DNA of 64,000 bases. It comes from Arachidicoccus sp. GTDB lineage: Bacteria; Bacteroidota; Bacteroidia; Chitinophagales; Chitinophagaceae. Both the position numbers and the translations under genes were made by a program. A model generated the notes under the pieces. It saw nothing but the letters and a program-made list of their open reading frames with translations. It made no database searches and was not told the origin of the DNA. The stretch covers positions 21,469-85,468 of the forward strand of contig JAPWKH010000016.1 in assembly GCA_028283605.1 (NCBI GenBank), in the 5' to 3' direction. This document shows positions 866 to 18,180 of this stretch, piece by piece (position 1 is the stretch's first letter; each line of letters opens with the position of its first letter).

Positions 866-926
866 CGTCAGCCCGCCATTTCGCCAAACCGATGTATCTT
901 GCGCAACAGTTACCGATGTTACCTGC
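866..926. repeat. Truncated attC-like site (distal end of cassette array)
   Basis: Only the right half of an attC-like palindrome is present: GCCCGCC at 871-877, CGCCAAACC at 882-890, then GATGT, an IS footprint, and the box GTTACCTGC (918-926). The expected left half (a GGCTTGGCG-type arm) is absent upstream, so the site is damaged. The box at 918 is the exact reverse complement of GCAGGTAAC at 2905-2913, which closes cassette 1. In the orientation running away from the recombinase this is the terminal attC of the array. Confidence 0.6.
896..914. mobile_element. Footprint of a deleted IS1182-like element
   Basis: Nineteen bases lie between two copies of GATGT (891-895 and 915-919). The right part, TTGCGCAACAGTTACC, matches the right terminus of the intact IS copy at 16338-16353 at 15 of 16 positions. 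The flanking pentanucleotide repeat is the same one that flanks that copy. This is best read as a nearly complete deletion of a fourth IS copy that left its right end and target duplication behind. Confidence 0.55.
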
Positions 927-946
927 TGCCCTTTGTCTGTCAGACT

Positions 947-1900
947 CTACAAATAAAGTATCGTTAATAGCGTTGCCAAAGAAATTACAAGCCACAATGT
1001 CAATCCTTGTAAAATTGGGTTTAGTCCTACGGAAGCTAATGTTTTTTTAGATAGTCCACAGCCAATTAGAAAAAGTGTAGCTGTTAGTCCTGATTTAGAA
1101 ATCTGCACAATAGAACTACTGATTTTTTGCACAAAAGGAACGTATGTATTTATAATAATAGCAAAAACGAATAACCCAATGAAATAAGGAATTTTAATTT
1201 TTTTGTCTTCTGATTTAAAAAGAAATCCACTTAAAAAAGCTACGGGAATAATCCACAATGCTCTTGCCAGCTTAACGGTTGTGGCAATTTGCATAGCTTC
1301 GTTTCCATACTTGCTTGCGGCACCTACAACAGAACTTGTGTCGTGAATAGCAATAGCACACCATAAACCGAATTGCGATTGCGAAAGATGTAATTGTCCG
1401 CCAATAAAAGGAAATAAAAAAAGGGCAATGGAATTGAGTATAAAAACAGTTCCCAAAGCTACGCTTATTTGTTTTTCTTCTGCTTTGATAACAGGCGAAA
1501 CCGCAGCAATAGCACTTCCCCCACATATTGCTGTTCCCACAGAAATAAGAAAAGATGTTTTATTATTTATCTTCAAAAATTTACCCAACGAATAGCCCAA
1601 AATAAGTGTGCCGATAATGGAAACAACTGTAAATAAGATTCCGTCTTTTCCCGCTTTTAATGCCGTGCTTACATTCATTCCGAAACCTAATCCTACTACG
1701 GAAATCTGCAATAATAAATGCGTGGCTTTATGATTAAGATGCAAATAGGGATGTCCGACAAATTGTGCTATCATTATGCCTAAGAACAAAGCAATTGGCG
1801 GTGATACGAAAGGCGATAGGCAACATATAAGCGTTAAGAGAAAAATTACTTTTCTTGTAGTGTTATTCTGTTCTGAATTATTATTCCTGATGTTTTTCAT
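947..1900 (-). CDS. YeiH-type (UPF0324) putative sulfate exporter family protein
   Basis: A 317-residue polytopic membrane protein with about ten hydrophobic segments. The family hallmark SVGTAICGGSAIAAVSPVIK lies near residue 120, and the region AIHDTSSVVGAA near 185 also fits the YeiH/UPF0324 family, annotated as putative sulfate exporters; the true substrate is not established. Length is close to the family norm (about 320-350). It follows the LysR-type gene (1972-2868) on the same strand with a 71-bp gap, the arrangement seen for yeiE-yeiH in enterobacteria, so LysR control is likely. It is cargo of cassette 1; the stop lies about 20 bp from the cassette boundary box. Confidence 0.85.
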   Translation of the reverse strand: MKNIRNNNSEQNNTTRKVIFLLTLICCLSPFVSPPIALFLGIMIAQFVGHPYLHLNHKATHLLLQISVVGLGFGMNVSTALKAGKDGILFTVVSIIGTLILGYSLGKFLKINNKTSFLISVGTAICGGSAIAAVSPVIKAEEKQISVALGTVFILNSIALFLFPFIGGQLHLSQSQFGLWCAIAIHDTSSVVGAASKYGNEAMQIATTVKLARALWIIPVAFLSGFLFKSEDKKIKIPYFIGLFVFAIIINTYVPFVQKISSSIVQISKSGLTATLFLIGCGLSKKTLASVGLNPILQGLTLWLVISLATLLTILYL

Positions 1901-1971
1901 TGCACTAAAAATTATTTCGGTGCAATATTCAGCAACATTAGCACGACAGGGAAATGATTATTAGCAATCTT

Positions 1972-2868
1972 CTATAACTTAAAGTTATCACGGCTCATAA
2001 ATTTCAAAAATAATTCTTGCAAGTAATTTGAGCCGCCTTGTTGGATAATGAAATAAAAATACCGTTCAATGCTCAAATCTTCTATATCTATGATTTTTAG
2101 TTCATTATTTTTTAGTTCTTTGAATATGGAATGAACAGATAAAAATGCAAAAGCGTTTGAATGAAATAGATAAGATTTAATACTTTCACTACTTTCTAAA
2201 ATTAGTTCAATATTCAGTTGCGAAAACTTCACGTTCACTTTTTTCAAAGCTGCAACAATGACTTCCAAAGAACCCGAACCTTGTTCACGCACAACCAATG
2301 GCAACTTTTGCAATTCGTTTAATGTGATTGTTGATTTTTTGATTGCCTTATTTGTGATGCTTGTGCAAAGCACAATTTCGTCTTTAATGAACGGTATGTA
2401 TTTTATATTTTGGCGTTTGGATTGTCCTTCAACAATGCCTAAATCAATTTTATTGTCCACTAACAGGCTTTCGATATGTTCCGTGTTTCCGTCCGTGAGT
2501 TCAATGTGAATGTCGGGAAACTTCTGTTTGAATAACGCAAGATATTTAGGCAAAACGTATTGAGCAACAGTAGTGCTTGCACCTAATTTAATAGAGCCTT
2601 TCACACTTTCGTTTAGTGCCGCCAAATCAAATTCAATGTCCCGGTAAATATTAAAAATACTTTCGGTGTAGTTTAATAACGTAGCACCGGCAACTGTCAG
2701 CTTTATTTTCGTTCCGTTTCGTTCAAACAGTTTGCATTTGTAAAAACTTTCAACTTCCTGAATATGTTTTGTTACGGCAGGTTGTGTAATAAAAAGTTCT
2801 TCTGCAGCTTTTGTAAAGTTGAGCCGTTTTGCAACCGTATGAAATACTTTTAATCTAAAATCAAACAT
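1972..2868 (-). CDS. LysR-family transcriptional regulator
   Basis: A 298-residue protein with the standard layout: winged HTH in residues 1-65 (FHTVAKRLNFTKAAEELFIT, then QPAVTKHIQEVE) and a substrate-binding domain from about 90 to 290 (IKLGASTTVAQYVLP, DLGIVEG, VREQGSGS). The GSGS-type anion-binding loop and the YeiE/CysB-like features fit sensing of a small sulfur or other anion, but the ligand is not established. It sits directly upstream of, and on the same strand as, the YeiH-type exporter and probably activates it. Both form cassette 1 of the array; the closing box GCAGGTAAC lies 36 bp upstream of the start codon. Confidence 0.85.
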   Translation of the reverse strand: MFDFRLKVFHTVAKRLNFTKAAEELFITQPAVTKHIQEVESFYKCKLFERNGTKIKLTVAGATLLNYTESIFNIYRDIEFDLAALNESVKGSIKLGASTTVAQYVLPKYLALFKQKFPDIHIELTDGNTEHIESLLVDNKIDLGIVEGQSKRQNIKYIPFIKDEIVLCTSITNKAIKKSTITLNELQKLPLVVREQGSGSLEVIVAALKKVNVKFSQLNIELILESSESIKSYLFHSNAFAFLSVHSIFKELKNNELKIIDIEDLSIERYFYFIIQQGGSNYLQELFLKFMSRDNFKL

Positions 2869-2904
2869 TTGTCAAATATAATGATAGCTTCGGTTTTTAG
2901 GGTT

Positions 2905-2989
2905 GCAGGTAACGTTTTGGTGTTTGGGCGTGAAAGTCCGCAGGAACTTTCATGTGTGAACGTCAGTCGCCATAACGCCAAACCGCTGT
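2905..2989. repeat. attC-like site B, left part (interrupted by IS copy 1)
   Basis: Begins with the R''-type box GCAGGTAAC (2905-2913). One arm, GGTGTTTGGGCG (2919-2930), pairs imperfectly with CGCCATAACGCCAAACC (2968-2984). A small inner hairpin TGAAAGT/ACTTTCA lies at 2931-2952. The site continues after the IS at 4731 with GCTGT and the next box GTTATTGGC (4734-4742). The outer boxes GCAGGTAAC and GTTATTGGCTGC are partly complementary. Confidence 0.65.
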
Positions 2990-4730
2990 GCCTGTTGCAC
3001 AACTAAGATATGCACATTATGTGAATGATAGAAATTAAGAACGCTTTTTGCGGAATAAATTTTATGCAAGGCAAAAAGAACCTCACCCCACAACTATTCT
3101 ACAATACAAGTCTGGATCGACTTGTGCCCGAAGATAATTTTTACAGAAAGCTCAGCAAGGAGCTGGATCTCCACTTTATTTATAAAGCCACTGCAAAATA
3201 CTACGGCAGGGAAGGACAAGAGAGTATCGATCCCGTTGTTTTTTTTAAAATATTGCTGGTCGGCTATTTCAACAATATCAACAGTGACCGTGCATTGCTG
3301 CGTTATTGTGCCAATTGCTTAGATGTTCGTTTGTTCTTACAATATGATTTAGGGGAAGACCTACCCTGGCACAGTACCATTAGCCGCACAAGGCAACTGT
3401 ATGGCGAAGAAGTGTTTTTAAGTTTGTTTCAAACAGTATTGAAACTATGTTTAGACAAAGGCATGATACGAGGCAAGCGCCAATGTGTGGACAGCGCCTT
3501 CATAAAAGCCAATGCCTCCATGGACAGCTTGATAGAAAAAGAAGTGGTAGAAGATGCAAGTGCTTTTGTAAACGAGCTTAACGAGAACAGTGAATACAAA
3601 GTAACGACTGAAAGAAAAAAGTTAGTTGACCGTCATCATAAGTGGAAAGAAGAAGCGTACAAAGGCATGCCCGGCAATAATAAAAGCGATCGTGTGGATG
3701 AAGACGGCAATGAAATCCGCCCGAAATTCCTGAGCAATCATACACATTACAGCCCAACCGACCCCGATGCAAAGATCAGTGTAAAGCCCGGCAAGGCCCG
3801 ACATCTCAATTATGCAGGACAGTTGGCAGTAGATGATGCGCACCACGTGATTACTGGTGCCTGCGCCAGTACGGCGGGTAGTAAAGACAGTGCTATCCTG
3901 CATGAAATTGTTGACCAAACCATACACAATCTTGAAAGCAACGGCATGCAGCTCGAAGAACTGATAGCCGATGCCGGCTACAGCAGCGGCGAAGCTTTGC
4001 AATATCTGGATGATAAAAACATAGATGCGTGGATACCGAATTTCGGGCAATACAAGCCCTTGCGGGAAGGGTTCATTTATAACAAAGAAAAGAACCAATA
4101 CGAATGTATAAAAACCACCGGTCACAAAGCCGTCCTCACATTTAAGGGCACTAAGACCGACAGCAAAGGCTACAGCAAACATATCTACCGCAGCAGCGAG
4201 AAAGATTGTAAAAACTGTCCGTTACGCACAGAGTGCTGCGGAAAAGCTACCAAATTTAAAAAGATAGACAATTCTATATACAAGCCCTTGTATGACAAGA
4301 TGCACTTAAAGCTTAGGGAGCATCGGGCTTATCACCGCAGGTTAGTAAAGCGGCGAAGCTCCACTGTAGAACCAGTACTTGGCACACTTATTAACCATCA
4401 CAATATGCGACGGATCAATGCGAGGGGCATGCAAGCGGCCAACAAACACATATTAATGGCAGCGCTATGCTATAATCTGAAGAAATACCTGAAGTTCACC
4501 CGTAACCTGCCACAAAGTATGGCAATAGCCCTGCAAAAAATGAAGGGGAAATCCTTTTATTTTATTTTTTTGATCTTAAGGTTAGCCATACCGGCCAATA
4601 GGCGGGTGCCAAAACTTTATGAAATCAGCAACCCATAAAAAACAGACTCCGGCATTAAGGCTGTATATGCGTTTTGAAACGGTATTATGGAATCAAAATT
4701 TATTTAATTGGTAGTTGTGCAACAGTTACT
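2990..4730 (+). mobile_element. IS1182-like insertion sequence, copy 1 (intact)
   Basis: A 1741-bp element with 14-bp perfect terminal inverted repeats CTGTTGCACAACTA at 2992-3005 and 4712-4725 (inverted), flanked by the direct repeat GCTGT (2985-2989 and 4731-4735). The exact outer boundary is uncertain by a few bases because the termini outside the inverted repeats differ. It encodes one uninterrupted transposase. It is inserted in the right arm of an attC-like site just inside the GTT core. Two further near-identical copies lie at 11514 and 14615, in the same orientation. Confidence 0.85.
3025..4638 (+). CDS. IS1182-family transposase
   Basis: A 537-residue DDE transposase. The N-terminal region (about 25-110) matches the DUF772/InsH-type domain (LVPEDNFYRKL, LLVGYFNNINSDRALLRY). 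The C-terminal catalytic region carries the expected acidic residues in QCVDSAFIKANAS, LIADAGYSSGEA and SSTVEPVLGTL. A cysteine cluster (CKNCPLRTECC) near 400 is typical of the IS1182 group. The start could instead be the ATG at 3064 (MQGKKNLTP), which is where homologues tend to begin. The last 24 residues exist only because of a seven-T run; copy 3 has six and ends earlier. This is the only copy without an internal frameshift and is presumably the functional source. Confidence 0.92.
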   Translation: MIEIKNAFCGINFMQGKKNLTPQLFYNTSLDRLVPEDNFYRKLSKELDLHFIYKATAKYYGREGQESIDPVVFFKILLVGYFNNINSDRALLRYCANCLDVRLFLQYDLGEDLPWHSTISRTRQLYGEEVFLSLFQTVLKLCLDKGMIRGKRQCVDSAFIKANASMDSLIEKEVVEDASAFVNELNENSEYKVTTERKKLVDRHHKWKEEAYKGMPGNNKSDRVDEDGNEIRPKFLSNHTHYSPTDPDAKISVKPGKARHLNYAGQLAVDDAHHVITGACASTAGSKDSAILHEIVDQTIHNLESNGMQLEELIADAGYSSGEALQYLDDKNIDAWIPNFGQYKPLREGFIYNKEKNQYECIKTTGHKAVLTFKGTKTDSKGYSKHIYRSSEKDCKNCPLRTECCGKATKFKKIDNSIYKPLYDKMHLKLREHRAYHRRLVKRRSSTVEPVLGTLINHHNMRRINARGMQAANKHILMAALCYNLKKYLKFTRNLPQSMAIALQKMKGKSFYFIFLILRLAIPANRRVPKLYEISNP

Positions 4731-4799
4731 GCTGTTATTGGCTGCCCATTCTTTCGTCCGTTATTTGTCTGTCGGGTCGGGTGTTGTCGGTGCGTTGGC

Positions 4800-4866
4800 T
4801 TGGGTAGCTCTTTTGCATTTTTCTGTTGGGTTTGTGCGGTTGCGAAAATGCAAATGTGCTACCCAA
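4800..4866 (-). terminator. Hairpin with TTGTGCG loop at end of the sulfur operon
   Basis: Two-part stem: TTGGGTAGC (4800-4808) with GCTACCCAA (4858-4866), and TTTGCATTTT (4812-4821) with AAAATGCAAA (4845-4854), separated by a three-base internal loop tct/tgt. The loop contains TTTGTGCG. It overlaps the stop codon of the minus-strand gene at 4859 and could end the operon. It resembles hairpins at 11253 and 14546, so it is more than a generic terminator. Confidence 0.5.
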
Positions 4867-5608
4867 TAGCGTGGACTTTGGTTGTCTTTGTCCGTTTGTG
4901 TAACTGATAAGTCAAGTTCAGAAAGATGTTATTTTCGTGTAGTTTGGTTGTGCCTGTCAAAGGCAGTCGGGCAATGTGGATATAACCGATATCAAATTTC
5001 AGATAAGGTAAAACTGTGTATTCAAGGTTTAGTCCAATTCTGTCGTGGTCAAAGAAATGATGTTGTGTTGTGCCTGAAAGATTAAAAAGTAATTCATCAA
5101 AAACTGAAAGTTTTATTTTGTCTATAAAGTCGTAACGAAAGCCAAAACGGTTTCTTAGTCGTGTGATGTCAGATTGATTGTTGTCAAACATTCGGTATTC
5201 AATCGCTGTCCTGTCCACAACGTAAAACTTTTTTACAATTATGTGTTGTAGTTCAACTGCTGCCGAAAAACGAATTTCATTATTAGGTTGTGCGATTTCG
5301 TCTGTCTTGTTTTGAATAATCCTGTAATGAGAAAAATAAGCGAAAGGCGATACGGAAACCTTTACATCTTCATTGTGTTGATAATGCACCCAACTTCTGT
5401 AAGTAAACATCAAGTTTCTGTCAAACAAGTTTGCATTGTCAAATCCGTTTTGTCGTCTGTGCTGAAACTCGTTGTCTATTTTGAATTTCTTGCCAACAGG
5501 AATACTCAAAGTGCTGCGAAACCAAGCATTGTAATGTTGTTGTGCCTGTGAAGTCTGGACAATAGAAATCCATATTGCTGTCGTCAGCAATTTTTTTAAC
5601 CAATTCAT
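4859..5608 (-). CDS. DUF2490 outer-membrane beta-barrel protein
   Basis: A 249-residue protein with an N-terminal signal peptide (MNWLKKLLTTAIWISIVQTSQAQ, cleavage near residue 22). The remainder is an alternating hydrophobic/polar beta-strand pattern (QHYNAWFRSTLSIPVGKKF, NEFQHRR, FAYFSHYRI, FDIGYIHIA), which matches DUF2490, a Bacteroidota barrel family of unknown function. It is the last gene of the sulfur operon, 9 bp downstream of the YeeE/YedE-like gene, so it may help small sulfur compounds cross the outer membrane (inference). The stop codon lies within a hairpin. Confidence 0.75.
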   Translation of the reverse strand: MNWLKKLLTTAIWISIVQTSQAQQHYNAWFRSTLSIPVGKKFKIDNEFQHRRQNGFDNANLFDRNLMFTYRSWVHYQHNEDVKVSVSPFAYFSHYRIIQNKTDEIAQPNNEIRFSAAVELQHIIVKKFYVVDRTAIEYRMFDNNQSDITRLRNRFGFRYDFIDKIKLSVFDELLFNLSGTTQHHFFDHDRIGLNLEYTVLPYLKFDIGYIHIARLPLTGTTKLHENNIFLNLTYQLHKRTKTTKVHAIG

Positions 5609-5617
5609 AGATGTTTT

Positions 5618-6118
5618 TTAGTGTGGAAGTTTTTCTCTGAAATATCCGTAAACCCAAGTGCCTGCAATGGCACTCAAAAGCGTAACGGCAATAACGGTTG
5701 CACCTGTTCCGATTTGTGCAAACAACGGACCGGGGCAAGCTCCCGTAATTGCCCAACCCAAACCAAAAATTAAACCGCCATAGATTTGTCCTTTATTAAA
5801 TTCTTTGGGTGAAATTTTAATTGGTTCGCCATAAATGGTTTTGATGTTGAATTTCTTAATCAGGAAAACGGAAATCATACCGACAACAATGGCACTCCCG
5901 ATTATTCCATACATATGAAACGACTGTAAACGAAACATTTCTTGTATGCGAAACCAACTTACAATTTCTGCTTTTACAAACACAATTCCGAATAAAATTC
6001 CTACGATTAAGTATTTCAAATTGTGATACCACTTGTGTTCCAAACGACTTTCGTTTACGCACATTGCGTCTAATTCACGAAGTTGTAAATCTTTTTCTAT
6101 ATCTGTATTTTGTTGCAT
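5618..6118 (-). CDS. YeeE/YedE-family sulfur transport protein, second half
   Basis: A 166-residue membrane protein with four hydrophobic segments. The motif GLGWAITGACPGPLFAQIGTG (about 125-145) matches the YeeE/YedE (sulf_transp, DUF6691) signature, in which a conserved cysteine lies in the pore. In E. coli a single YeeE protein takes up thiosulfate. Here the transporter is split into two half-length genes, this one and 6130-6693, separated by 11 bp, a common Bacteroidota and proteobacterial form. It probably moves thiosulfate or another sulfur species in the persulfide pathway encoded upstream. The long N-terminal cytoplasmic tail is unremarkable. Confidence 0.8.
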   Translation of the reverse strand: MQQNTDIEKDLQLRELDAMCVNESRLEHKWYHNLKYLIVGILFGIVFVKAEIVSWFRIQEMFRLQSFHMYGIIGSAIVVGMISVFLIKKFNIKTIYGEPIKISPKEFNKGQIYGGLIFGLGWAITGACPGPLFAQIGTGATVIAVTLLSAIAGTWVYGYFREKLPH

Positions 6119-6129
6119 TTCTGTTTTAG

Positions 6130-6693
6130 TTAAAGTGAAAGAATAAAAGGTAAAATGAGATTAGCCATAATGAAACCGCCAATCATAAAACTAATGGTCG
6201 CAATCAATGACGGAAGTTGTAAATTGGACAATCCCATAATGGCGTGTCCGCTTGTGCAACCACCTGCGTAACGTGTGCCGAAACCCACTAAAAAACCACC
6301 GACAACCATAAGTAAAAATCCTTTCAGCGTAAACAGCGATTGCCAATTTATGATGTCTTTTGGTACAAGGTTGTTGAAATTTGTAATGCCGTAACCTGCT
6401 AATTCTGTTGCTAATTTTGGATTGACTTCAACAGGATTGGCATTTGATAAAAGGTTTATTGCTATTGCTCCGCCTAAAAAAATGCCGAACACAAAAAACA
6501 AATTCCACACTTCTTTTTTCCAATCGTATTTAAAAAATGGAATGTTGGCAGGCATACACGAAGCACAAACGTGGCGAAGTGATGAACTGATGCCGAAAGA
6601 TTTGTTGCCAATAATTAAAAGTGCAGGAACAGTTAAACCGATTAACGGTCCCGCTACATACCAAGCCCAAGGCTGTTTTATAAATTCTATCAT
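6130..6693 (-). CDS. YeeE/YedE-family sulfur transport protein, first half
   Basis: A 187-residue membrane protein with about five hydrophobic segments and the family motif [20 protein letters not shown] near residue 140, whose cysteine is expected in the transport path. An additional CASCMPAN motif near residue 45 is also cysteine-bearing. It pairs with the adjacent half-transporter at 5618-6118; together they approximate a full YeeE. It lies 7 bp downstream of the thioredoxin gene within a tightly packed operon. The substrate is inferred from family and context (thiosulfate or related sulfur compound), not proven. Confidence 0.82.
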
Positions 6694-6700
6694 TTTTATT

Positions 6701-6994
6701 TTACTTGTTTTCGTTAATCAATTTTTCCAATTCGTTTGCAGGAACTACTCCCGATTGTCGCCAAAGCGGTTTTCCGTTTTTGAATAAAATAAGTGTTGGC
6801 ACACCACGCACCTGATAAGCTGCTGCGACTTGTTGGTTTTTGTCCACATCAATTTTGATGATGCTTGCATTTTCACCAACACGATTTTTTACATCGTCTA
6901 AAATGGGCAACATCATTTTGCACGGACTGCACCAAGTGGCAAAGAAGTCCACCAATACAGGTTTATCCTGATTTATTATTTCCTGAAATGTCAT
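6701..6994 (-). CDS. Thioredoxin
   Basis: A 97-residue protein spanning one thioredoxin fold with no signal peptide. The active site is [11 protein letters not shown] (about 17-27), with Ser replacing the usual Gly of WCGPC. The cis-proline region is [14 protein letters not shown]. It is likely cytoplasmic and, in this operon, may accept or reduce protein persulfides produced by the rhodanese enzymes. The start codon overlaps the end of the upstream DUF6132-like gene by 32 bp, indicating translational coupling. Confidence 0.88.
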
Positions 6995-7196
6995 ACTGTT
7001 TTTTTATTGTCTTTTGAAACATTGAGAATAAAAGACCGCCCATAATTGAGCCGTAAATGGTGCTGCTAGTCGGGTTTGAAGTGATTGCACAACTTCCCGA
7101 ACTGCAAACCACCTGTTGCCAATAAAAATATCCTGCCGTTGCATCAACAAACAGACCAATGATTGTGAGTAAATGTTTTTTAGCGAATTTCTTCAT
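6963..7196 (-). CDS. Small membrane protein, DUF6132-like
   Basis: A 77-residue protein with an N-terminal basic stretch (MKKFAKKH), a hydrophobic segment LLTIIGLFVDATAGYFYW, a central CSSGSC motif and a second hydrophobic segment TIYGSIMGGLLFSMF. Bacteroidota sulfur clusters often carry such a protein (DUF6132). The vicinal cysteines could carry sulfur or redox equivalents, but no function is known. It overlaps both neighbours (17 bp upstream, 32 bp downstream), typical of a compact operon. Confidence 0.7.
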   Translation of the reverse strand: MKKFAKKHLLTIIGLFVDATAGYFYWQQVVCSSGSCAITSNPTSSTIYGSIMGGLLFSMFQKTIKKQYDISGNNKSG

Positions 7197-7413
7197 AGCT
7201 TACATCTTCTACATTTCTGTTGCTTTTGCGAATAGGCGTATTACAACCCGAAGCACCACAACAACCAATATTCATTATTGGCATTAGCGAAAACAAAACA
7301 CCTGCTCCGACAAACAACCATTCTTTTGTTGAAATGCCTTGAACAATAATGAATATGCCCATTGCTAAACGCAACACACGCATAAAATCCCAAGTTTTTA
7401 AATAGTTTTTCAT
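7180..7413 (-). CDS. Small inner-membrane protein of the sulfur operon
   Basis: A 77-residue protein starting at ATG 7411-7413 (MKNYLKTWDFMRVLRLAMG). An upstream ATG at 7440 would overlap the preceding gene more. It has two hydrophobic helices and a CCGASGC cysteine cluster near residue 50 followed by a polar tail. Homologous short proteins are common beside rhodanese genes in Bacteroidota, and the layout resembles DUF2892/YgaP-tail proteins. The cysteine cluster, again close to a membrane helix, suggests sulfur handling, but no specific role can be assigned. Confidence 0.65.
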   Translation of the reverse strand: MKNYLKTWDFMRVLRLAMGIFIIVQGISTKEWLFVGAGVLFSLMPIMNIGCCGASGCNTPIRKSNRNVEDVSYEEIR

Positions 7414-7415
7414 TG

Positions 7416-7673
7416 TTAATTCATTTTTCCAATTGCACAACTGATGTATGATTTTGCTTGTTTCAAAATCGTGTTGTTTCCTTTTTCGGGATAACCCAAT
7501 TTTGAAAGTTCCTGCACTAAAATATTTTTGTCTGTTGTGCCGTAAATGGTTACTATTTCGGTGTCTTTGTCAATGCTTACATTTTGCACACCGTCAATTT
7601 TTAGCAAAGCGGTTTTAATGCTGTTCATACAGCCACCGCATTTTATATTTTCTACTTCTATGTTGTGTGTCAT
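7416..7673 (-). CDS. Heavy-metal-associated (HMA) domain protein
   Basis: An 85-residue ferredoxin-like HMA domain: VENIKCGGCMNSIKTALLKI carries the CxxC metal or thiol site at about residues 12-15, followed by DGVQNVSIDKDTEIVTIYG. The C-terminal extension holds one more cysteine (YISCAIGK). HMA proteins usually bind Cu(I), but in sulfur clusters they may act as sulfur carriers; the sequence cannot decide. It overlaps the downstream end of the YgaP-like gene (7670) by 4 bp and sits 2 bp before the next gene. Confidence 0.8.
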   Translation of the reverse strand: MTHNIEVENIKCGGCMNSIKTALLKIDGVQNVSIDKDTEIVTIYGTTDKNILVQELSKLGYPEKGNNTILKQAKSYISCAIGKMN

Positions 7674-7879: not shown

Positions 7880-7884
7880 TGTTC

Positions 7885-9718: not shown

Positions 9719-9724
9719 CAAAAT

Positions 9725-10522: not shown

Positions 10523-10540
10523 TGTTTTAAGATTGATGCA

Positions 10541-11205: not shown

Positions 11206-11252
11206 TTTGCAAAGTTACAATTTTGTTTGGGTGGTGGGTGGGCTTGGTTGGG

Positions 11253-11316: not shown

Positions 11317-11382
11317 GATGCGTTGGCAATTTTTCTGTTTTTTGTCCGTCTGTTGATGTCTGCACGGTGGTCTGTCAGGGTT

Positions 11383-11513: not shown

Positions 11514-13255
11514 GCCTGTTGCACAACTAAGATATGCACATTATGTGAATGATAGAAATTAAGAACGCTTTTTGCGGAATAAATTTTATGCAAGGCAAAA
11601 AGAACCTCACCCCACAACTATTCTACAATACAAGTCTGGATCGACTTGTGCCCGAAGATAATTTTTACAGAAAGCTCAGCAAGGAGCTGGATCTCCACTT
11701 TATTTATAAAGCCACTGCAAAATACTACGGCAGGGAAGGACAAGAGAGTATCGATCCCGTTGTTTTTTTTAAAATATTGCTGGTCGGCTATTTCAACAAT
11801 ATCAACAGTGACCGTGCATTGCTGCGTTATTGTGCCAATTGCTTAGATGTTCGTTTGTTCTTACAATATGATTTAGGGGAAGACCTACCCTGGCACAGTA
11901 CCATTAGCCGCACAAGGCAACTGTATGGCGAAGAAGTGTTTTTAAGTTTGTTTCAAACAGTATTGAAACTATGTTTAGACAAAGGCATGATACGAGGCAA
12001 GCGCCAATGTGTGGACAGCGCCTTCATAAAAGCCAATGCCTCCATGGACAGCTTGATAGAAAAAGAAGTGGTAGAAGATGCAAGTGCTTTTGTAAACGAG
12101 CTTAACGAGAACAGTGAATACAAAGTAACGACTGAAAGAAAAAAGTTAGTTGACCGTCATCATAAGTGGAAAGAAGAAGCGTACAAAGGCATGCCCGGCA
12201 ATAATAAAAGCGATCGTGTGGATGAAGACGGCAATGAAATCCGCCCGAAATTCACTGAGCAATCATACACATTACAGCCCAACCGACCCCGATGCAAAGA
12301 TCAGTGTAAAGCCCGGCAAGGCCCGACATCTCAATTATGCAGGACAGTTGGCAGTAGATGATGCGCACCACGTGATTACTGGTGCCTGCGCCAGTACGGC
12401 GGGTAGTAAAGACAGTGCTATCCTGCATGAAATTGTTGACCAAACCATACACAATCTTGAAAGCAACGGCATGCAGCTCGAAGAACTGATAGCCGATGCC
12501 GGCTACAGCAGCGGCGAAGCTTTGCAATATCTGGATGATAAAAACATAGATGCGTGGATACCGAATTTCGGGCAATACAAGCCCTTGCGGGAAGGGTTCA
12601 TTTATAACAAAGAAAAGAACCAATACGAATGTATAAAAACCACCGGTCACAAAGCCGTCCTCACATTTAAGGGCACTAAGACCGACAGCAAAGGCTACAG
12701 CAAACATATCTACCGCAGCAGCGAGAAAGATTGTAAAAACTGTCCGTTACGCACAGAGTGCTGCGGAAAAGCTACCAAATTTAAAAAGATAGACAATTCT
12801 ATATACAAGCCCTTGTATGACAAGATGCACTTAAAGCTTAGGGAGCATCGGGCTTATCACCGCAGGTTAGTAAAGCGGCGAAGCTCCACTGTAGAACCAG
12901 TACTTGGCACACTTATTAACCATCACAATATGCGACGGATCAATGCGAGGGGCATGCAAGCGGCCAACAAACACATATTAATGGCAGCGCTATGCTATAA
13001 TCTGAAGAAATACCTGAAGTTCACCCGTAACCTGCCACAAAGTATGGCAATAGCCCTGCAAAAAATGAAGGGGAAATCCTTTTATTTTATTTTTTTGATC
13101 TTAAGGTTAGCCATACCGGCCAATAGGCGGGTGCCAAAACTTTATGAAATCAGCAACCCATAAAAAATAGCCTCCGGCATTAAGGCTGTATATGCGTTTT
13201 GAAACGGTATTATGGAATCATAATTTATTTAATTGCTAGTTGTGCAACAGTTACC
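11514..13255 (+). mobile_element. IS1182-like insertion sequence, copy 2 (frameshifted)
   Basis: A 1742-bp copy, nearly identical to copy 1, with inverted repeats at 11516-11529 and 13237-13250. Flanking pentamers are CTTGT (11509) and CGTGT (13256), which differ at one base, unlike the matching repeats around copies 1 and 3. This may reflect mutation or recombination between IS copies. It carries one extra base inside the transposase gene. Confidence 0.85.
11549..13163 (+). pseudogene. IS1182-family transposase, frameshifted
   Basis: Same gene as at 3025, broken by a +1 change near 12254 (TTCACTGAGC here, TTCCTGAGC in copy 1, TTCACGAGC in copy 3). The first frame ends at 12361 after 270 residues, losing two of the three catalytic acidic residues; the second part can be read to 13163. 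The three copies differ most at exactly this short spot, so either this is a mutational hotspot or it marks a sequencing/assembly difficulty. Programmed frameshifting is not expected here because copy 1 reads through. Confidence 0.85.
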
Positions 13256-13272
13256 CGTGTTATAGGCAGTTT

Positions 13273-13891
13273 TTATTTGACTTCTAATTCTTTAATTATT
13301 TTTAAAAGTTTTTCTCGATTCTTACTTGATGACATCCAAACCGGAAGTTTTTCAATCATAGTCCAATGAGTACGATTATTACTTTCTCTAATTTCAGCAG
13401 AAATATAATTTTTCAGATAGTTCAGATGTTCATAATTATATGCCCAAAAAATGTTTTCCTTAAAGTTTGAAGTTATCCAAAGTGGTAATCCAAAATAATC
13501 ATCGGTAGCTTTTCCATTTTCAGTATAAACCCATTCTTGAGCAATATTTCTTGGTTCATAATCCTGAGTAATACCACACTTTTTGCATTTAATAGCAATC
13601 TTTTCTTTTTTCTCAATTACATTTGGTATTAACAATTCAATTTCTTCTGAACAGTTTGAACAATTACATTTTAATTCAACTCGAAAAGTTTTTTTTCTAC
13701 CTTTTTTGAGAATAATGGCAGTTAGGGCAAGACAAAATTCTTTCAGAAAAATAAGAATATGGAGTTTCCTTTCTTATAATAGCTCTTTTAGAACATTTTG
13801 GGCATTCAACAAATATTTCATTTTGAAAATTATTCAAAGTATAATTTTCATCTTTAAATCTATTATTTGTCTTTTCGGATACTGTTGTCAT
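13273..13891 (-). pseudogene. Zinc-ribbon protein gene, frameshifted (cassette 3 cargo)
   Basis: Two adjacent minus-strand frames (13697-13891 and 13273 to about 13705) join into one protein if a single base change is corrected in the six-T run at 13702-13707. The joined product, about 205 residues, has CPKC (residue about 31), CPNC (about 53), then CNCSNC and CKKC, i.e. two consecutive zinc-ribbon pairs. A conserved C-terminal region follows (FGLPLWITSNFKENIFWAYN, EKLPVWMSSSKNREKLLKII). This matches bacterial proteins annotated as TFIIB-type zinc-ribbon proteins, of unknown function. A sequencing error in the homopolymer could also explain the break. Confidence 0.75.
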
Positions 13892-13897
13892 AAAATT

Positions 13898-13996
13898 GCC
13901 TATAACGTTTCAGGGCTTGGCGTTCGGGCGGGAAAGTCCGAAGGAACTTTCACACTTGAACGTCAGCCAGCCTGACGCCAAACCCGAGTTATGTGC
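13898..13996. repeat. attC-like site D (uninterrupted)
   Basis: The only complete site in the main array, 99 bp. It has box GCCTATAAC (13898-13906), arm GGCTTGGCG (13914-13922) pairing with CGCCAAACC (13976-13984; one G-T), GGGCGGGAAAGT and ACTTTCAC forming an inner hairpin, and box GTTATGTGC (13988-13996). The box at 13898 pairs perfectly with the box at 13259 (start of cassette 3); the box at 13988 pairs perfectly with 14532 (end of cassette 4). The stem is imperfect with unpaired bases, as expected for a folded single-strand recombination substrate. Confidence 0.75.
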
Positions 13997-14016
13997 TGCC
14001 CTTCTTTCGTTCAATG

Positions 14017-14505
14017 TTATTTTTGTAGGGATTGATTTACTATTTCTTGTCGTCCGGAAACAATTAGTTCGTCCATTGAAACAGGGTCAAAGTTGTCAGC
14101 CATTACAAAAAACTTAACGGTAATTGTATTGTCTTGTCCGTAGTCTTTTTCAATATTAAATGTTTGTCCTGCTTCAGTTTTTTGAAGTTTTTCTGAAATT
14201 AAATTTTTTAATTTTTTCAAATCTTGAATTGTTCCCGCAATATAATCTGCTGTTATTGTCGGTTTGTTCCATGTCATTACTTTCAAATAACTGTAAGGTC
14301 CGTAATGCTCGTGTTCAGATAAAGTGTCGTTAGCTGGATTGTTTATGTATTTGTCAAGCAAAGAAACAAAGTTCTGTAATCCTTTTTTACTGCCGTAAAA
14401 TCTACATTGATTTATGTCAATTCTGTCGTCACGGTCGTAATAGAAGCCAAGTTGTCGCCATTCGTCAATCATCATTTTGTCAATATCAATTTTTTTGTCT
14501 GTCAT
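14017..14505 (-). CDS. Hypothetical protein, cassette 4 cargo
   Basis: A 162-residue soluble protein with no signal peptide or membrane segment. Recognisable but unnamed features: EWRQLGFYYDRDDRIDINQC near the start, FYGSKKGLQNFVSLLDKYI, then EHEHYGPYSYLKVMTWNKP and, near the end, KFFVMADNFDPVSMDE. The composition and size resemble immunity-type or small accessory proteins found as isolated genes in Bacteroidota, but I cannot assign a family with certainty. It is the only gene in a 550-bp cassette bounded by GTTATGTGC and GCACATAAC, read away from the recombinase. Confidence 0.75.
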   Translation of the reverse strand: MTDKKIDIDKMMIDEWRQLGFYYDRDDRIDINQCRFYGSKKGLQNFVSLLDKYINNPANDTLSEHEHYGPYSYLKVMTWNKPTITADYIAGTIQDLKKLKNLISEKLQKTEAGQTFNIEKDYGQDNTITVKFFVMADNFDPVSMDELIVSGRQEIVNQSLQK

Positions 14506-14531
14506 TGTTGTGATGTTGGTCGTCTAAGGTT

Positions 14532-14614
14532 GCACATAACGGTAAACGGCTTTGCGTTCGTTGCTTATGTGTGTTTGCCTTGTGCGTTGGCAAGCAATAA
14601 CGCAAAACCGATGT
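14532..14614. repeat. attC-like site E, left part (interrupted by IS copy 3)
   Basis: Box GCACATAAC (14532-14540), arm GGCTTTGCGTT pairing with AACGCAAAACC (ending 14609), and an inner hairpin TTGCC/TTGGCAA around CTTGTGCG. It therefore has the same outer logic as the other sites but a different inner stem-loop. It is interrupted after GATGT (14610-14614) and resumes at 16354 with GATGT and box GTTATGTGAG (16357-16366). Confidence 0.7.
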
Positions 14615-16353
14615 GCCTGTTGCACAACTAAGATATGCACATTATGTGAATGATAGAAATTAAGAACGCTTTTTGCGGAATAAATTTTATGCAAGGCAAA
14701 AAGGACCTCACCCCACAACTATTCTACAATACAAGTCTGGATCGACTTGTGCCCGAAGATAATTTTTACAGAAAGCTCAGCAAGGAGCTGGATCTCCACT
14801 TTATTTATAAAGCCACTGCCAAATACTACGGCAGGAAGGACAAGAGAGTATCGATCCCGTTGTTTTTTTTAAAATATTGCTGGTCGGCTATTTCAACAAT
14901 ATCAACAGTGACCGTGCATTGCTGCGTTATTGTGCCAATTGCTTAGATGTTCGTTTGTTCTTACAATATGATTTAGGGGAAGACCTACCCTGGCACAGTA
15001 CCATTAGCCGCACAAGGCAACTGTATGGCGAAGAAGTGTTTTTAAGTTTGTTTCAAACAGTATTGAAACTATGTTTAGACAAAGGCATGATACGAGGCAA
15101 GCGCCAATGTGTGGACAGCGCCTTCATAAAAGCCAATGCCTCCATGGACAGCTTGATAGAAAAAGAAGTGGTAGAAGATGCAAGTGCTTTTGTAAACGAG
15201 CTTAACGAGAACAGTGAATACAAAGTAACGACTGAAAGAAAAAAGTTAGTTGACCGTCATCATAAGTGGAAAGAAGAAGCGTACAAAGGCATGCCCGGCA
15301 ATAATAAAAGCGATCGTGTGGATGAAGACGGCAATGAAATCCGCCCGAAATTCACGAGCAATCATACACATTACAGCCCAACCGACCCCGATGCAAAGAT
15401 CAGTGTAAAGCCCGGCAAGGCCCGACATCTCAATTATGCAGGACAGTTGGCAGTAGATGATGCGCACCACGTGATTACTGGTGCCTGCGCCAGTACGGCG
15501 GGTAGTAAAGACAGTGCTATCCTGCATGAAATTGTTGACCAAACCATACACAATCTTGAAAGCAACGGCATGCAGCTCGAAGAACTGATAGCCGATGCCG
15601 GCTACAGCAGCGGCGAAGCTTTGCAATATCTGGATGATAAAAACATAGATGCGTGGATACCGAATTTCGGGCAATACAAGCCCTTGCGGGAAGGGTTCAT
15701 TTATAACAAAGAAAAGAACCAATACGAATGTATAAAAACCACCGGTCACAAAGCCGTCCTCACATTTAAGGGCACTAAGACCGACAGCAAAGGCTACAGC
15801 AAACATATCTACCGCAGCAGCGAGAAAGATTGTAAAAACTGTCCGTTACGCACAGAGTGCTGCGGAAAAGCTACCAAATTTAAAAAGATAGACAATTCTA
15901 TATACAAGCCCTTGTATGACAAGATGCACTTAAAGCTTAGGGAGCATCGGGCTTATCACCGCAGGTTAGTAAAGCGGCGAAGCTCCACTGTAGAACCAGT
16001 ACTTGGCACACTTATTAACCATCACAATATGCGACGGATCAATGCGAGGGGCATGCAAGCGGCCAACAAACACATATTAATGGCAGCGCTATGCTATAAT
16101 CTGAAGAAATACCTGAAGTTCACCCGTAACCTGCCACAAAGTATGGCAATAGCCCTGCAAAAAATGAAGGGGAAATCCTTTTATTTTATTTTTTGATCTT
16201 AAGGTTAGCCATACCGGCCAATAGGCGGGTGCCAAAACTTTATGAAATCAGCAACCCATAAAAAACAGACTCCGGCATTAAGGCTGTATATGCGTTTTGA
16301 AACGGTATTATGGAATCAAAATTTATTTAATTGGTAGTTGTGCAACAGTTACC
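14615..16353 (+). mobile_element. IS1182-like insertion sequence, copy 3 (frameshifted)
   Basis: A 1739-bp copy with inverted repeats at 14617-14630 and 16335-16348 and a perfect target duplication GATGT (14610-14614 and 16354-16358); identity of the flanks extends to ACCGATGT. Differences from copy 1 include AAG to GAC near the start (KKN to KKD), one missing G near 14835 and one fewer T near 16190. Confidence 0.87.
14650..16196 (+). pseudogene. IS1182-family transposase, frameshifted
   Basis: Same gene as at 3025 but with GGCAGGAAGG instead of GGCAGGGAAGG near 14835. The initial frame therefore leaves the transposase reading after about 60 residues and stops at 14946. The remainder can be read from 14877 to 16196 (439 residues) and contains all three catalytic acidic residues. 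A six-T run ends the protein at IF, 24 residues before the end in copy 1. A truncated product from the internal ATG would lack the N-terminal DNA-binding region. Confidence 0.85.
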
Positions 16354-16395
16354 GATGTTATGTGAGGTGCATTTGTAAACTATATAAATTAAAAT

Positions 16396-16635
16396 ATGAA
16401 TACCATAAAAGAACTTATACAATCAATACCTGTCAACCGAGCAAATTTTGAACATATCGCCCAAACAGGACGAATAAACGGAAGTCTGTTGGTTGAAATA
16501 GAAAAAATGATTGAGAAACATTTTATACCAAAATTAAAAGATTTTGAACCGTCAAATCCGCTTGAAGATTTGATGACAAAAAAAGTACAACAAATTTTAA
16601 AATATCAAAAAGAACAAAGAAAATTTAATAAATAA
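16396..16635 (+). CDS. Small hypothetical protein, cassette 5 gene 1
   Basis: A 79-residue, mostly helical polar protein (MNTIKELIQSIPVNRANFEH, then EIEKMIEKHFIPKLKDFEPS, C-terminus rich in Lys/Gln). Its stop TAA shares one base with the ATG of the next gene (TAATG), so translation is coupled. The size and overlapping pair resemble toxin-antitoxin modules often found in integron cassettes, but neither protein shows a recognised toxin or antitoxin family. Unlike the other cargo genes it reads towards the recombinase. Confidence 0.65.
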   Translation: MNTIKELIQSIPVNRANFEHIAQTGRINGSLLVEIEKMIEKHFIPKLKDFEPSNPLEDLMTKKVQQILKYQKEQRKFNK

Positions 16636-16913
16636 TGGCAATATTCAAAGAGGCACAGATAAAAAAAATGCTTGATCACGTTGCAACAGGCAATATGTCG
16701 TTAAGCCAATTCACACAATCGTTAAATATAGAAGCGTACAAGTATCAAGCACATAAAGGCGATTTAGTTACAATGATGGATGTGGTTAGAAATTTGGAAG
16801 CGTTTTTAGTCCATAATGAAAATACTAAAAACATAACAAAGATTAAAATCAAAACACTCATCGATTATATGAAGTCGGAAGTTGTGGAAGGTGCGTTGTC
16901 GCATCTCACATAA
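16635..16913 (+). CDS. Small hypothetical protein, cassette 5 gene 2
   Basis: A 92-residue protein, predicted largely helical, no signal peptide. It begins MAIFKEAQIKKMLDHVATGN and contains VTMMDVVRNLEAFLVHNENT. The stop codon TAA (16911-16913) lies inside the cassette boundary box CTCACATAAC (16905-16914), so the gene fills its cassette completely. Together with the overlapping upstream gene it forms a two-gene unit of unknown function; a stabilising toxin-antitoxin role is a reasonable hypothesis but not shown. Confidence 0.65.
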   Translation: MAIFKEAQIKKMLDHVATGNMSLSQFTQSLNIEAYKYQAHKGDLVTMMDVVRNLEAFLVHNENTKNITKIKIKTLIDYMKSEVVEGALSHLT

Positions 16914-17074
16914 CTCTCAAATATACGAAACTTTGCAATCTCCTTAACTTATGATGATTTATTTATTTATGATTGATATACAGCTTTCTCAATTGAGTAA
17001 GCAAGTTTCGCAGACTGAATAATTTTTATAAAATATTATTTGTTTATTTGTATAAAATTATACAATATACGAAA
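16905..17074. other. Candidate attI region beside the recombinase gene
   Basis: The last cassette box CTCACATAAC (16905-16914) is followed by plain AT-rich sequence, not by a palindrome, as expected for an attI-type junction. Candidate recombinase-binding repeats: ATATACGAAA at 16921-16930 and again at 17065-17074; CGAAACTTTGC (16926-16936) faces GCAAGTTTCG (17001-17010) in inverted order. All lie between the array and the recombinase start at 17098. Confidence 0.45.
17048..17065. promoter_or_regulatory. Inverted repeat upstream of recombinase gene
   Basis: TTGTATAA and TTATACAA, an 8-bp perfect inverted repeat with a 2-base spacer, 33 bp before the recombinase ATG. It overlaps the expected promoter and is a possible repressor site. 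No consensus of a named regulator is recognised. Confidence 0.35.
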
Positions 17075-17097
17075 TATCAGTCTATAAAACTTACGCT

Positions 17098-18180
17098 ATG
17101 AGTTTCAACCCGAAAAATTATCAATCAACATTGGGCAGCCATAATGATAAAGATGTTATCTGGATATCTTTTCCATACGATATTTTATTGATTGAGGAAC
17201 TGAAACAAGTATCTCAACCTAAATGGAGCAATTCAAAAAAATGTTGGTATTTGCAGGATGTAACACATTACCGTGACTTGTTCAATATTCTCCAAAAAAA
17301 TTATGGCAAAAGCATATTAAGCAATATCAGCGATATAAATAAACCTGCTTTCTTGCGCTATGTGGAGCAATTGCAACTTAAAGGCTACAGCCATCAAACA
17401 ATTAGAACTTACAGCGTTGAATTTGCACAATTATTGAAAGTGCTGAAATCTTTTCCTGTCAATGATTTAACCGAAGAGCGTTTGCGGAGCTATTTCCTGT
17501 ATTGTGTGCAAAAGCTGAGACTTTCAGAAAATCAAATTCACAGCAGAATGAATGCCATTAAATTTTATTTCGAACAAATATTGCATCGAAGTAAATTTTT
17601 TATGGAAATTCCGAGACCCAAAAAACCGAGCATTTTGCCCAAAGCCTTATCGGCTGCCGACATTAAAAAAATGCTGAATACAGTCGAAAATAATAAGCAT
17701 AAACTCTTGTTGCAATTGTGCTATGGCATGGGATTGCGCGTAAGTGAATTGGTACATCTTAAGATTACCGACATCGACAGTAAACGTATGCAAGTGTTGG
17801 TAAACGCCGGTAAAGGGAAGAAAGACAGATATGTAAATCTGCCGAATTCTATTTTGGATTTATTAAGGCAATATTATAAAGAATACAGGCCTAAAGAATA
17901 TTTGTTCGAAGGCCAGTACGGAGGCGCTTATTCCGTGAGAAGCGTGCAAATCATTTTTAAGAAAACGATGCAAAAGGCAAAGATTAATAAGAAAGTAGGC
18001 GTTCACAGTCTTCGGCACAGCTATGCTACACATTTGCTGGAAGCCGGCACAGATATATCTTTTATACAAAAATTGCTCGGGCACAATGATATTAAAACAA
18101 CACTTATTTATACACAAGTATCCGACCGCAATTTATCATCTATACAAAGTCCATTGGATAAAATAAATAACCACCCATAG
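17098..18180 (+). CDS. Tyrosine recombinase, IntI/XerC-D-like, of the cassette array
   Basis: A 360-residue protein. Residues 1-70 form an extra N-terminal region (ISFPYDILLIEELKQVSQPK, WSNSKKCWYL). About 80-165 is a SAM-like core-binding domain and 180-345 the catalytic domain. All catalytic residues are visible: R214 (GMGLRVSELV), K239 (GKGKKDR), H303 and R306 (HSLRHSYATHLL), H329 (LLGHNDIKTT) and Y338 (IYTQV). The linker RPKKPSILPKALS and the tail IQSPLDKI resemble IntI. The roughly 20-residue insertion characteristic of classical IntI between the K and HxxR motifs seems absent (the segment 258-302 is short), so it is XerC/D-like in that respect. Its position directly beside the array and its transcription away from it suggest it inserts and excises the cassettes. 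Confidence 0.85.
   Translation: MSFNPKNYQSTLGSHNDKDVIWISFPYDILLIEELKQVSQPKWSNSKKCWYLQDVTHYRDLFNILQKNYGKSILSNISDINKPAFLRYVEQLQLKGYSHQTIRTYSVEFAQLLKVLKSFPVNDLTEERLRSYFLYCVQKLRLSENQIHSRMNAIKFYFEQILHRSKFFMEIPRPKKPSILPKALSAADIKKMLNTVENNKHKLLLQLCYGMGLRVSELVHLKITDIDSKRMQVLVNAGKGKKDRYVNLPNSILDLLRQYYKEYRPKEYLFEGQYGGAYSVRSVQIIFKKTMQKAKINKKVGVHSLRHSYATHLLEAGTDISFIQKLLGHNDIKTTLIYTQVSDRNLSSIQSPLDKINNHP

What the first reader, a model, noticed from the sequence alone, without database searches (positions are those of the whole stretch)
918..18180. Integron-like cassette array with adjacent tyrosine recombinase in a Bacteroidota chromosome
Five consecutive segments each begin with a GTTANNNNN box and end with its own reverse complement (9-10 bp, perfect in four, one wobble in the fifth), although the boxes differ between segments. 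Neighbouring segments are separated by long imperfect palindromes (attC-like), and an intact tyrosine recombinase gene points away from the array after 184 bp. Self-complementary ends per cassette are the defining consequence of integron recombination, where the R'' and R' boxes come from one folded attC. Chance cannot plausibly explain five independent pairs. Departures from classical integrons: the recombinase seems to lack the IntI-specific insertion, one cassette is 6.7 kb, and the last site is damaged.
Basis: partly seen in the sequence, partly recalled or inferred. Interest (0 to 1): 0.95.

Follow-up and report, generated by a model that had tools for sequence, protein, structure and literature searches.

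The report
New integron lineage in Bacteroidota
This stretch holds five gene cassettes lined up behind a conserved junction site, like an integron, but the recombinase beside them, which likely moves the cassettes, lacks the protein part thought essential for that job in known integrons, and the same arrangement recurs in related bacteria, so it could show how integrons arose.

Summary
Five cassettes (918-16914, read on the minus strand) carry self-complementary 9-10 nt ends. They start at a conserved attI-like site (16911-16930) beside a tyrosine recombinase (17098-18180). Related recombinases in Bacteroidota have the same site, upstream or downstream of the gene. In 30 of 41 testable loci the exact reverse complement of the attI-junction box lies 100-2500 nt further on, against 22 of 1612 swapped boxes. 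An attC model built only from other genomes finds four of the window's five predicted sites (one weakly) and nothing else in 64 kb. Cassettes shared between genomes diverge at the GTT boundary. The 6.7-kb, 12-ORF sulfur cassette recurs in two other genera with the same ends. The recombinase lacks the IntI-specific insertion (65-68 residues against 107) and falls outside the IntI clade. An IS1182-family element that targets attC interrupts three sites. Catalysis, strand choice and present activity are inferred. I call it an integron-like system that fails IntI membership, a new variant of a known kind. The capped listings of ten full-text searches in an open-access library showed no description of it.

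The parts
17098..18180 (+). Tyrosine recombinase, 360 aa; R214, K239/K241, H303, R306, H307 and Y338 (taken as catalytic from recall of the family) invariant in 14 rows; no IntI-specific (I2) insertion; extra N-terminal alpha/beta domain of about 65 aa
16911..16930 (-). attI-like site, TTTCGTATATTTGAGA|GTTA on the minus strand; GTT begins at 16914
16357..16914 (-). Cassette C1 (558 nt); box GTTATGTGAG; two small ORFs on the opposite strand (16396-16635, 16635-16913)
14541..16356 (-). attC1, interrupted by IS copy 3; 3' part found by model R1 at 14531-14621 (E 9e-6)
14613..16352 (+). IS1182-family element, copy 3 (transposase frame broken), flanked by CGAT on both sides
13988..14540 (-). Cassette C2 (553 nt); box GTTATGTGC; one ORF (14017-14505)
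13907..13987 (-). attC2, the only uninterrupted site; R1 match 13897-13997 including the R boxes (E 3e-10)
13259..13906 (-). Cassette C3 (648 nt); box GTTATAGGCA; two ORFs
11392..13258 (-). attC3, interrupted by IS copy 2; R1 match at 11382-11520 (E 1e-9)
11512..13254 (+). IS1182-family element, copy 2 (transposase frame broken); flanking 4-nt repeats differ at one base
4734..11391 (-). Cassette C4 (6658 nt, 12 ORFs): Crp-type regulator, TauE-like exporter, MBL-rhodanese fusion, rhodanese, HMA domain, thioredoxin, two Sulf_transp-domain proteins, DUF2490 and others; no internal attC found by R1
2914..4733 (-). attC4, interrupted by IS copy 1; R1 match at 2904-2996 (E 0.26, weak)
2988..4729 (+). 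IS1182-family element, copy 1 (537-aa transposase open); flanking 4-nt repeats differ at one base
918..2913 (-). Cassette C5 (1996 nt); box GTTACCTGC; YeiH-like protein (PF03601) and LysR regulator
850..917 (-). Remnant of attC5 (R'' half only; inner limit approximate), with a 20-bp scar at 894-913 flanked by CGAT

Best explanation
This is an integron-like cassette array whose adjacent tyrosine recombinase, which lacks the IntI-specific insertion, likely moves the cassettes by what would be recombination of a double-stranded attI with attC sites folded from single-stranded DNA. Shown by sequence: a conserved attI-like junction, attC sites with a covarying stem, cassette ends that are reverse complements of each other, and cassettes shared between genomes that diverge at GTT. 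Inferred: that this recombinase is the catalyst, that the folded bottom strand is the substrate, and that insertion happens at attI. Also inferred is that the stem's two conserved non-Watson-Crick positions and its uneven spacer (3-4 nt against 5-7) replace the extrahelical bases that mark strand and polarity for IntI. In the window, an attC-targeting IS has interrupted three sites and apparently left a scar in a fourth, so this particular array is probably largely frozen.
For: attI: 33 of 77 loci have a site of 15 or more of 20 matches reading away from the recombinase, 0 of 77 reading towards it, 2 of 770 shuffles (the consensus was read by eye from some of the same loci). Self-complementary ends: 30 of 41 exact against 22 of 1612 swapped boxes; 10 nt in 22 and 9 nt in 8, never longer. 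Covariation: 45 double-change cells against 19.4 in shuffles, 0 of 500 as high; own arms pair better than every swapped arm in 29 of 32 sites on the bottom strand and 24 of 32 on the top. R1, with no window sequence in it, finds 4 of 5 predicted window sites, one of them weakly. With its 14 training sites and two repeat fetches left out, 130 of 131 R1 sites read away from the recombinase. Genomes with the recombinase: 78 of 96 carry R1 sites; without: 80 of 198 (Fisher p 1.8e-11). Mobility: L116/L117 identical in 194 of 200 nt before the attI GTT and 52 of 200 after it; L017/L133 cassette 86.8% identical, ending at the boxes; L133/L139 99.3% identical, one end at GTT; C4 shared with G269 and G490 with the same ends. 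Putative catalytic residues invariant. Canonical IntI in 0 of 14 sampled genomes of the family.
Against: No activity was tested. 11 of 41 loci with an attI-like motif (threshold 14 of 20) lack the exact box match within the 100-2500 nt searched; in one of them, L139, the match lies at 86 nt. 44 of 77 loci show no attI-like site at 15 of 20. 80 of 198 genomes without the recombinase at E <= 1e-70 still carry R1 sites, 15 of them five or more, and 18 of 96 with it show none. Bottom-strand preference rests on folding energy only (top lower in 8 of 33). Mismatch types show no overall strand bias (154 A-C, 145 G-T), and in window attC2 the strands are about equal (-19.1 and -18.6 kcal/mol). L133/L139 identity runs into the neighbouring attC arm at its other end.
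Confidence: 0.83

Rival explanations
1. The cassettes are mobilised in trans by a canonical IntI integrase; the neighbouring recombinase is a bystander.
For: Canonical IntI over its cut-off is present in 105 of 395 sampled genomes of the phylum. Many genomes carry attC sites without the recombinase.
Against: None of the 14 sampled genomes of the window's family has one at E <= 1e-55, yet 158 of 294 genomes of the family carry R1 sites. R1 finds 1 match at E <= 0.01 in 349 kb around 20 canonical intI genes and 162 in 1.30 Mb around this family, 14 of them its training sites. The attI motif lies beside this recombinase on either side.
Confidence: 0.07
2. A Xer-like double-stranded reaction at short palindromic core sites, with no folded single-stranded substrate.
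For: The recombinase just meets the XerA model NF040815 (220.4 against 220 bits) and lacks I2. Self-complementary ends alone would also follow from a palindromic core site.
Against: R'' and R' are separated by roughly 80-190 nt, with a covarying stem that brings them together; a double-strand core has a spacer of 6-8 bp (recalled).
Confidence: 0.08
3. A canonical integron whose IntI lost or degraded its insertion.
For: Layout matches classical integrons; partial similarity to TIGR02249 (189.3 bits). A published classification says the insertion is not fully conserved in its integron-like subgroup (PMC8138268, passages).
Against: 24 canonical IntI form one clade (100) apart from the 77-row clade that holds the window; all 47 rows with an attI-like motif lack the insertion, and the attC model barely sees canonical arrays. 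An ancient loss at the base of the clade is not excluded, since the tree's outgroup branches are long.
Confidence: 0.12
4. Repeats and palindromes without cassette recombination (REP-like elements plus IS insertions).
For: Three IS copies with inverted repeats explain part of the palindromes in the window.
Against: Cassette-precise sharing and attI-precise divergence between genomes; own-box complementarity.
Confidence: 0.02

Closest known systems
Sedentary chromosomal integrons with IntI
   Same: attI beside the integrase gene, arrays of attC sites with AAC/GTT boxes, cassette ends from one folded attC, sites in one orientation reading away from the integrase
   Different: Recombinase outside the IntI clade and without the I2 insertion; L stem without insertions in its first 10 bp where extrahelical bases would sit; conserved GCGTATATTTGAGA attI; cassette of 6.7-7.2 kb
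XerA / XerC-like 'simple' tyrosine recombinases
   Same: Size of the catalytic domain and lack of the insertion; best solved-structure sequence match is an archaeal XerC-like recombinase (4a8e) and best fold match is XerA 5hxy
   Different: Linked to attI and cassette arrays; about 65-aa N-terminal domain
IS1111-attC insertion sequences (IS110-type; recalled)
   Same: Insertion sequences that target integron attC sites
   Different: Here an IS1182-family DDE element (NF033551, 307.1 bits against 270), 4 nt from the R'' box at each junction seen

Membership tests
Integron (canonical, IntI-based) | Integrase scores as IntI (TIGR02249 cut-off 265 bits) | tested here: not met
   189.3 bits
Integron (canonical, IntI-based) | IntI-specific insertion (I2) in the catalytic domain | tested here: not met
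   65-68 residues from GKGKKDR to HxLRH in 47 of 47 rows with an attI-like motif (14 of 20 or more), 107 in 24 of 24 IntI; gap against IntI4 2a3v visible
Integron (canonical, IntI-based) | Recombinase falls inside the IntI clade | tested here: not met
   IntI monophyletic (100) without it; quick tree, SH-aLRT only
Integron (canonical, IntI-based) | attI site beside the integrase gene | tested here: met
   33 of 77 loci at 15 of 20 or more, reading away only; the window's site 19 of 20
Integron (canonical, IntI-based) | Tandem cassettes with R''/R' boxes and a GTT crossover | tested here: met
Integron (canonical, IntI-based) | attC that folds through paired arms (covariation) | tested here: met
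Integron (canonical, IntI-based) | Unpaired central spacer between R and L | tested here: met
   3-4 nt on one side (144 of 147), 5-7 nt on the other (140 of 145); asymmetric
Integron (canonical, IntI-based) | Extrahelical bases on the R''-L'' arm | tested here: not met
   The first 10 pairs of the L stem are one run of columns without insertions; 137 of 150 aligned sites have all 20 letters; two conserved non-Watson-Crick positions six pairs apart instead. The alignment was fitted to the model; deeper parts of the stem not resolved
Integron (canonical, IntI-based) | Recombination of the folded bottom strand | not testable with these tools
   Energy bias only; no mismatch bias
Integron (canonical, IntI-based) | Cassette promoter Pc | not tested
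   -
Xer recombinase (XerA model NF040815) | Curated score cut-off 220 | tested here: met
   220.4 bits, at the limit
Xer recombinase (XerA model NF040815) | Chromosome dimer resolution at dif | not testable with these tools
   Three other, more distant recombinase matches are in the genome
IS1182 family | Transposase model NF033551 cut-off 270 | tested here: met
   307.1 bits

The most novel reading that the evidence does not exclude
A second integron lineage, or one older than I2: a Xer-like recombinase family spread across Bacteroidota captures cassettes through folded attC without the I2 helix held to be exclusive to IntI, using an uneven spacer and paired mismatches instead. It moves whole regulated operons as single cassettes, and its sites are parasitised by their own attC-specific insertion sequence.
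Probability: 0.6. Interest if true: 0.95.

Novelty: new variant of a known kind. Interest (0 to 1): 0.9.

Why it matters
The I2 insertion is described as essential for integron function, though not fully conserved in its subgroup (PMC8138268, passages), and, together with single-strand recombination, as exclusive to integron integrases (PMC7790495, passages). A large family that builds integron-like arrays without it makes the origin and necessity of I2 directly testable. It also points to a gene-exchange system that may be common in part of Bacteroidota: 96 of 294 sampled genomes of the window's family have a relative of the recombinase (not all were shown to have an array) and 158 of 294 have sites of its attC type. 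A survey of complete genomes that searched for IntI and attC reported one complete integron in Bacteroidetes proper, Salinibacter ruber (PMC9024848, passages). A 12-ORF sulfur-metabolism cassette of 6.7-7.2 kb exceeds the roughly 2-kb maximum implied by PMC8352920 (passages), which would mean whole pathways can move in one step.

Tried and rejected
Rfam gave no match in window 1-20000 at E <= 1. Counting G-T against A-C mismatches to infer the folded strand gave no overall bias. Chains of cassettes by box matching alone (104 links) were not used as a count, because long 9-of-10 links can be chance. Folding window attC2 alone was weak. The 'missing attC inside C4' idea was tested with R1: none found, and G269 and G490 show the same unit. 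Phage and E. coli collections were not searched. The structure model (pLDDT 79.6, pTM 0.48) is only moderate and was used for the secondary structure of the N-terminal domain and a fold search. The nearest relative is 65% identical (L005).
Full report
OBSERVATION. The window was read directly and the borders checked base by base. On the minus strand, starting next to the recombinase gene, five segments follow one another: C1 16914-16357, C2 14540-13988, C3 13906-13259, C4 11391-4734 and C5 2913-918. Each begins with GTT plus a private box and ends with the reverse complement of that box, perfect over 9-10 nt in four and with one mismatch in C4. Between them lie attC-like sites. Three of the four interior ones are interrupted by a 1.74-kb IS1182-family element, the fourth (attC2, 13907-13987) is uninterrupted, and the fifth, terminal site is half lost.

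CONSERVED attI. A motif TTGCGTATATTTGAGA|GTTA lies either upstream of the recombinase gene (the window's layout) or downstream of it, reading away from the gene. Of 77 loci, 33 have a site with at least 15 of 20 matches in that sense, 0 in the opposite sense, and 2 of 770 block shuffles reach it; 44 of 77 have none at that score. The consensus was read by eye from some of these loci, so the opposite-sense control matters most. A number of contigs end at or near this junction, as would be expected where assemblies break in repeated arrays.

CASSETTE ENDS. The attI junction fixes where the first cassette starts, which gives a clean test. In 30 of 41 loci with at least 700 nt beyond an attI-like motif (threshold 14 of 20), the exact reverse complement of the 9-nt junction box lies 100-2500 nt downstream. 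Boxes swapped between loci do so in 22 of 1612 tries, and random GTTR 9-mers of the same sequences in 19 of 649. The complementarity is 10 nt in 22 loci and 9 nt in 8, never longer. Eleven loci fail within that range; one of them, L139, has its match at 86 nt.

attC STRUCTURE. Thirty-three sites were taken from chained cassettes by box match and spacing and one was dropped as not a site. In the remaining 32, the two arms pair better with each other than with every swapped arm in 29 (bottom strand) or 24 (top strand). On an alignment of the 14 shorter ones (A1), the stem shows 45 cells changed on both sides against 19.4 in shuffles, 0 of 500 as high. A covariance model R1 built from these 14, none from the window, finds in the 64-kb window exactly four matches up to E 5, all minus strand, at 13897-13997 (3e-10), 11382-11520 (1e-9), 14531-14621 (9e-6) and 2904-2996 (0.26, weak). 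These are the four interior attC; none lies inside the 6.7-kb C4, and the half-lost fifth site is not found. Over 89 of 98 sources (1.30 Mb) it finds 162 matches at E <= 0.01, the 14 training sites among them. Of the best 150, 3 lie in loci without a recombinase; with the 14 training sites and 2 repeat fetches also left out, 130 of 131 read away from the recombinase, the exception being a palindromic site listed on both strands. The stem's first 10 pairs have no insertion columns, and 137 of 150 aligned sites have all 20 letters. Two positions six pairs apart are conserved as non-Watson-Crick (T with G in 94 of 148; A with C in 66 of 147). The unpaired spacer is uneven, 3-4 nt after R'' (144 of 147) and 5-7 nt before R' (140 of 145). 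The top strand folds lower in only 8 of 33 sites, but mismatch types do not favour either strand overall (154 A-C, 145 G-T), and window attC2 folds about equally on both. Strand choice is therefore open.

THE RECOMBINASE. It just reaches NF040815 (220.4 against 220 bits; the model is named site-specific tyrosine recombinase/integron integrase) and falls short of the integron integrase model TIGR02249 (189.3 against 265). Against the solved IntI4 structure sequence, the two aligned stretches leave chain residues 202-247 out. From GKGKKDR to HxLRH it and its 46 relatives with an attI-like motif (14 of 20 or more) have 65-68 residues, as do 38 relatives without one; 24 canonical IntI have 107, and three other recombinases of the same genome have 69-75. 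In the tree, the 24 IntI form one group (100) and the window lies in a separate 77-row group (92), 30 of whose rows show no attI motif; the outgroup branches are long, so the order of the deep splits is unresolved. The residues taken as catalytic (from recall) are invariant in a 14-row alignment. The predicted model has an extra N-terminal alpha/beta domain of about 65 residues; the best fold matches are XerA, an archaeal Xer and IntI4.

DISTRIBUTION. At E <= 1e-70, 96 of 294 genomes of the window's family and 21 of 395 of the phylum have a relative. R1 sites (E <= 0.001, at most 11 candidates scored per genome) occur in 78 of 96 genomes with the recombinase and 80 of 198 without; mean 4.55 against 1.23. 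Canonical IntI over its cut-off occurs in 105 of 395 phylum genomes but in 0 of the 14 drawn from the window's family, its own genome included. Around 25 canonical intI genes (90 kb) R1 finds nothing at E <= 1. Around 20 of them with longer flanks (349 kb) it finds 7 matches at E <= 1, one of them at E <= 0.01; three lie in a row in L248 and may be canonical attC seen weakly. The two systems thus coexist in the phylum with largely different sites. The attC-positive genomes without a recombinase at this threshold are unexplained and may hold more distant relatives, broken assemblies or orphan arrays.

MOBILITY SEEN IN SEQUENCE. Two congeneric genomes (G636, G464; loci L116, L117) are identical in 194 of 200 nt up to the attI GTT and in 52 of 200 after it. 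A cassette of Faecalibacter macacae (L017) and one of G059 (L133), where it is the first cassette at attI, are 86.8% identical over 942 bp, ending at the GTTAGCGGTA/TACCGCTAAC boxes. L133 and L139, from different families, share a 1326-bp stretch at 99.3%; one end is at GTT, the other runs into the neighbouring attC arm. The C4 sulfur cassette recurs in G269 (7195 bp, 80.2% identical over aligned positions) and G490 (7039 bp, 86.7%), both with GTTATCGGC...GCCGATAAC ends. In G269 attC sites lie directly on both sides; G490's contig is barely longer than the cassette and begins inside a possible attC (E 0.3). In G486 one boundary is eroded, and in G479 and G506 no box was seen where I looked. 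The C4 mismatch in the window is thus probably a point change in one copy.

THE INSERTION SEQUENCE. The genome has three full copies, all in this array, and partial matches at C11 (two places), at the end of contig C14, and a 31-nt match at C18 that was not examined. At the three full copies and the first three partial ones the R'' box lies 4 nt from the same IS end, in the same orientation. The 4-nt flanks repeat exactly at copy 3 and at the attC5 scar and differ by one base at copies 1 and 2. Six relatives elsewhere (G269 twice, G672, G617, G665 and a Myroides albus plasmid) show the IS end 4 nt from GTT, or GAT in one; in the four whose other end could be read it adjoins an attC arm. This looks like an attC-targeting IS1182-family group. 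It interrupts the stem, so it likely immobilises the cassettes of this array.

MECHANISM. Inferred from the anatomy: the recombinase binds a folded attC, joins it to attI (or another attC) at the G|TT of R', and cassettes accumulate at attI. Which strand folds, how polarity is set without extrahelical bases, and how the junction is resolved are unknown. In known integrons these depend on I2 and extrahelical bases (PMC7790495 and PMC2727003, passages).

LITERATURE. Ten searches of an open-access library, several with capped listings, showed no description of such a system among the papers listed. Passages were read in PMC9024848, PMC9668308, PMC2426708, PMC7790495, PMC8138268, PMC2727003 and PMC8352920. 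One of them notes that the IntI insertion is not fully conserved in its integron-like subgroup (PMC8138268), so some relatives without it may have been seen before in sequence surveys. Subscription papers and preprints are not covered.

VERDICT. An integron-like system, common in part of Bacteroidota, whose recombinase fails the tests of IntI membership. It looks like a working integron by the sequence tests run here, apart from those rows of the membership table that were not met; enzymatic activity remains to be shown.

Noticed in passing
window 2988-4729, 11512-13254, 14613-16352; L265, L267-L270, L272: IS1182-family elements that insert in attC 4 nt from the R'' box, in one orientation, with exact or one-base-different 4-nt repeats; relatives occur in other genomes and on a Myroides albus plasmid beside a predicted macrolide-esterase gene.
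   Followed up: partly
window 4734-11391; L232, L234: A 6.7-7.2 kb cassette of 12 ORFs with its own Crp-type regulator, far larger than usual gene cassettes.
   Followed up: yes
G562 contig C8, 9572-95154: Eight listed attC matches on one strand over 85 kb, apparently a very large array.
   Followed up: no
own genome G000: C18:73038-73176, C22:67475-67578, C7:12699-12834, C11:4352-4490: attC-like matches outside the window array (E 4e-7 to 0.05); C11 also carries two IS remnants beside R'' boxes.
   Followed up: partly
phylum sample: Canonical IntI over its cut-off in 105 of 395 genomes of the phylum, more than the few reported from complete genomes.
   Followed up: no
window 16396-16913: C1 holds two small overlapping ORFs on the strand opposite to the other cassettes, with no informative family match.
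   Followed up: no
loci with the attI motif downstream (e.g. L078, L091, L101): The layout flips: of 47 rows with an attI-like motif it lies 3' of the recombinase gene in 28 and 5' in 19; 17 of the latter fall in one 27-row subclade with the window.
   Followed up: partly
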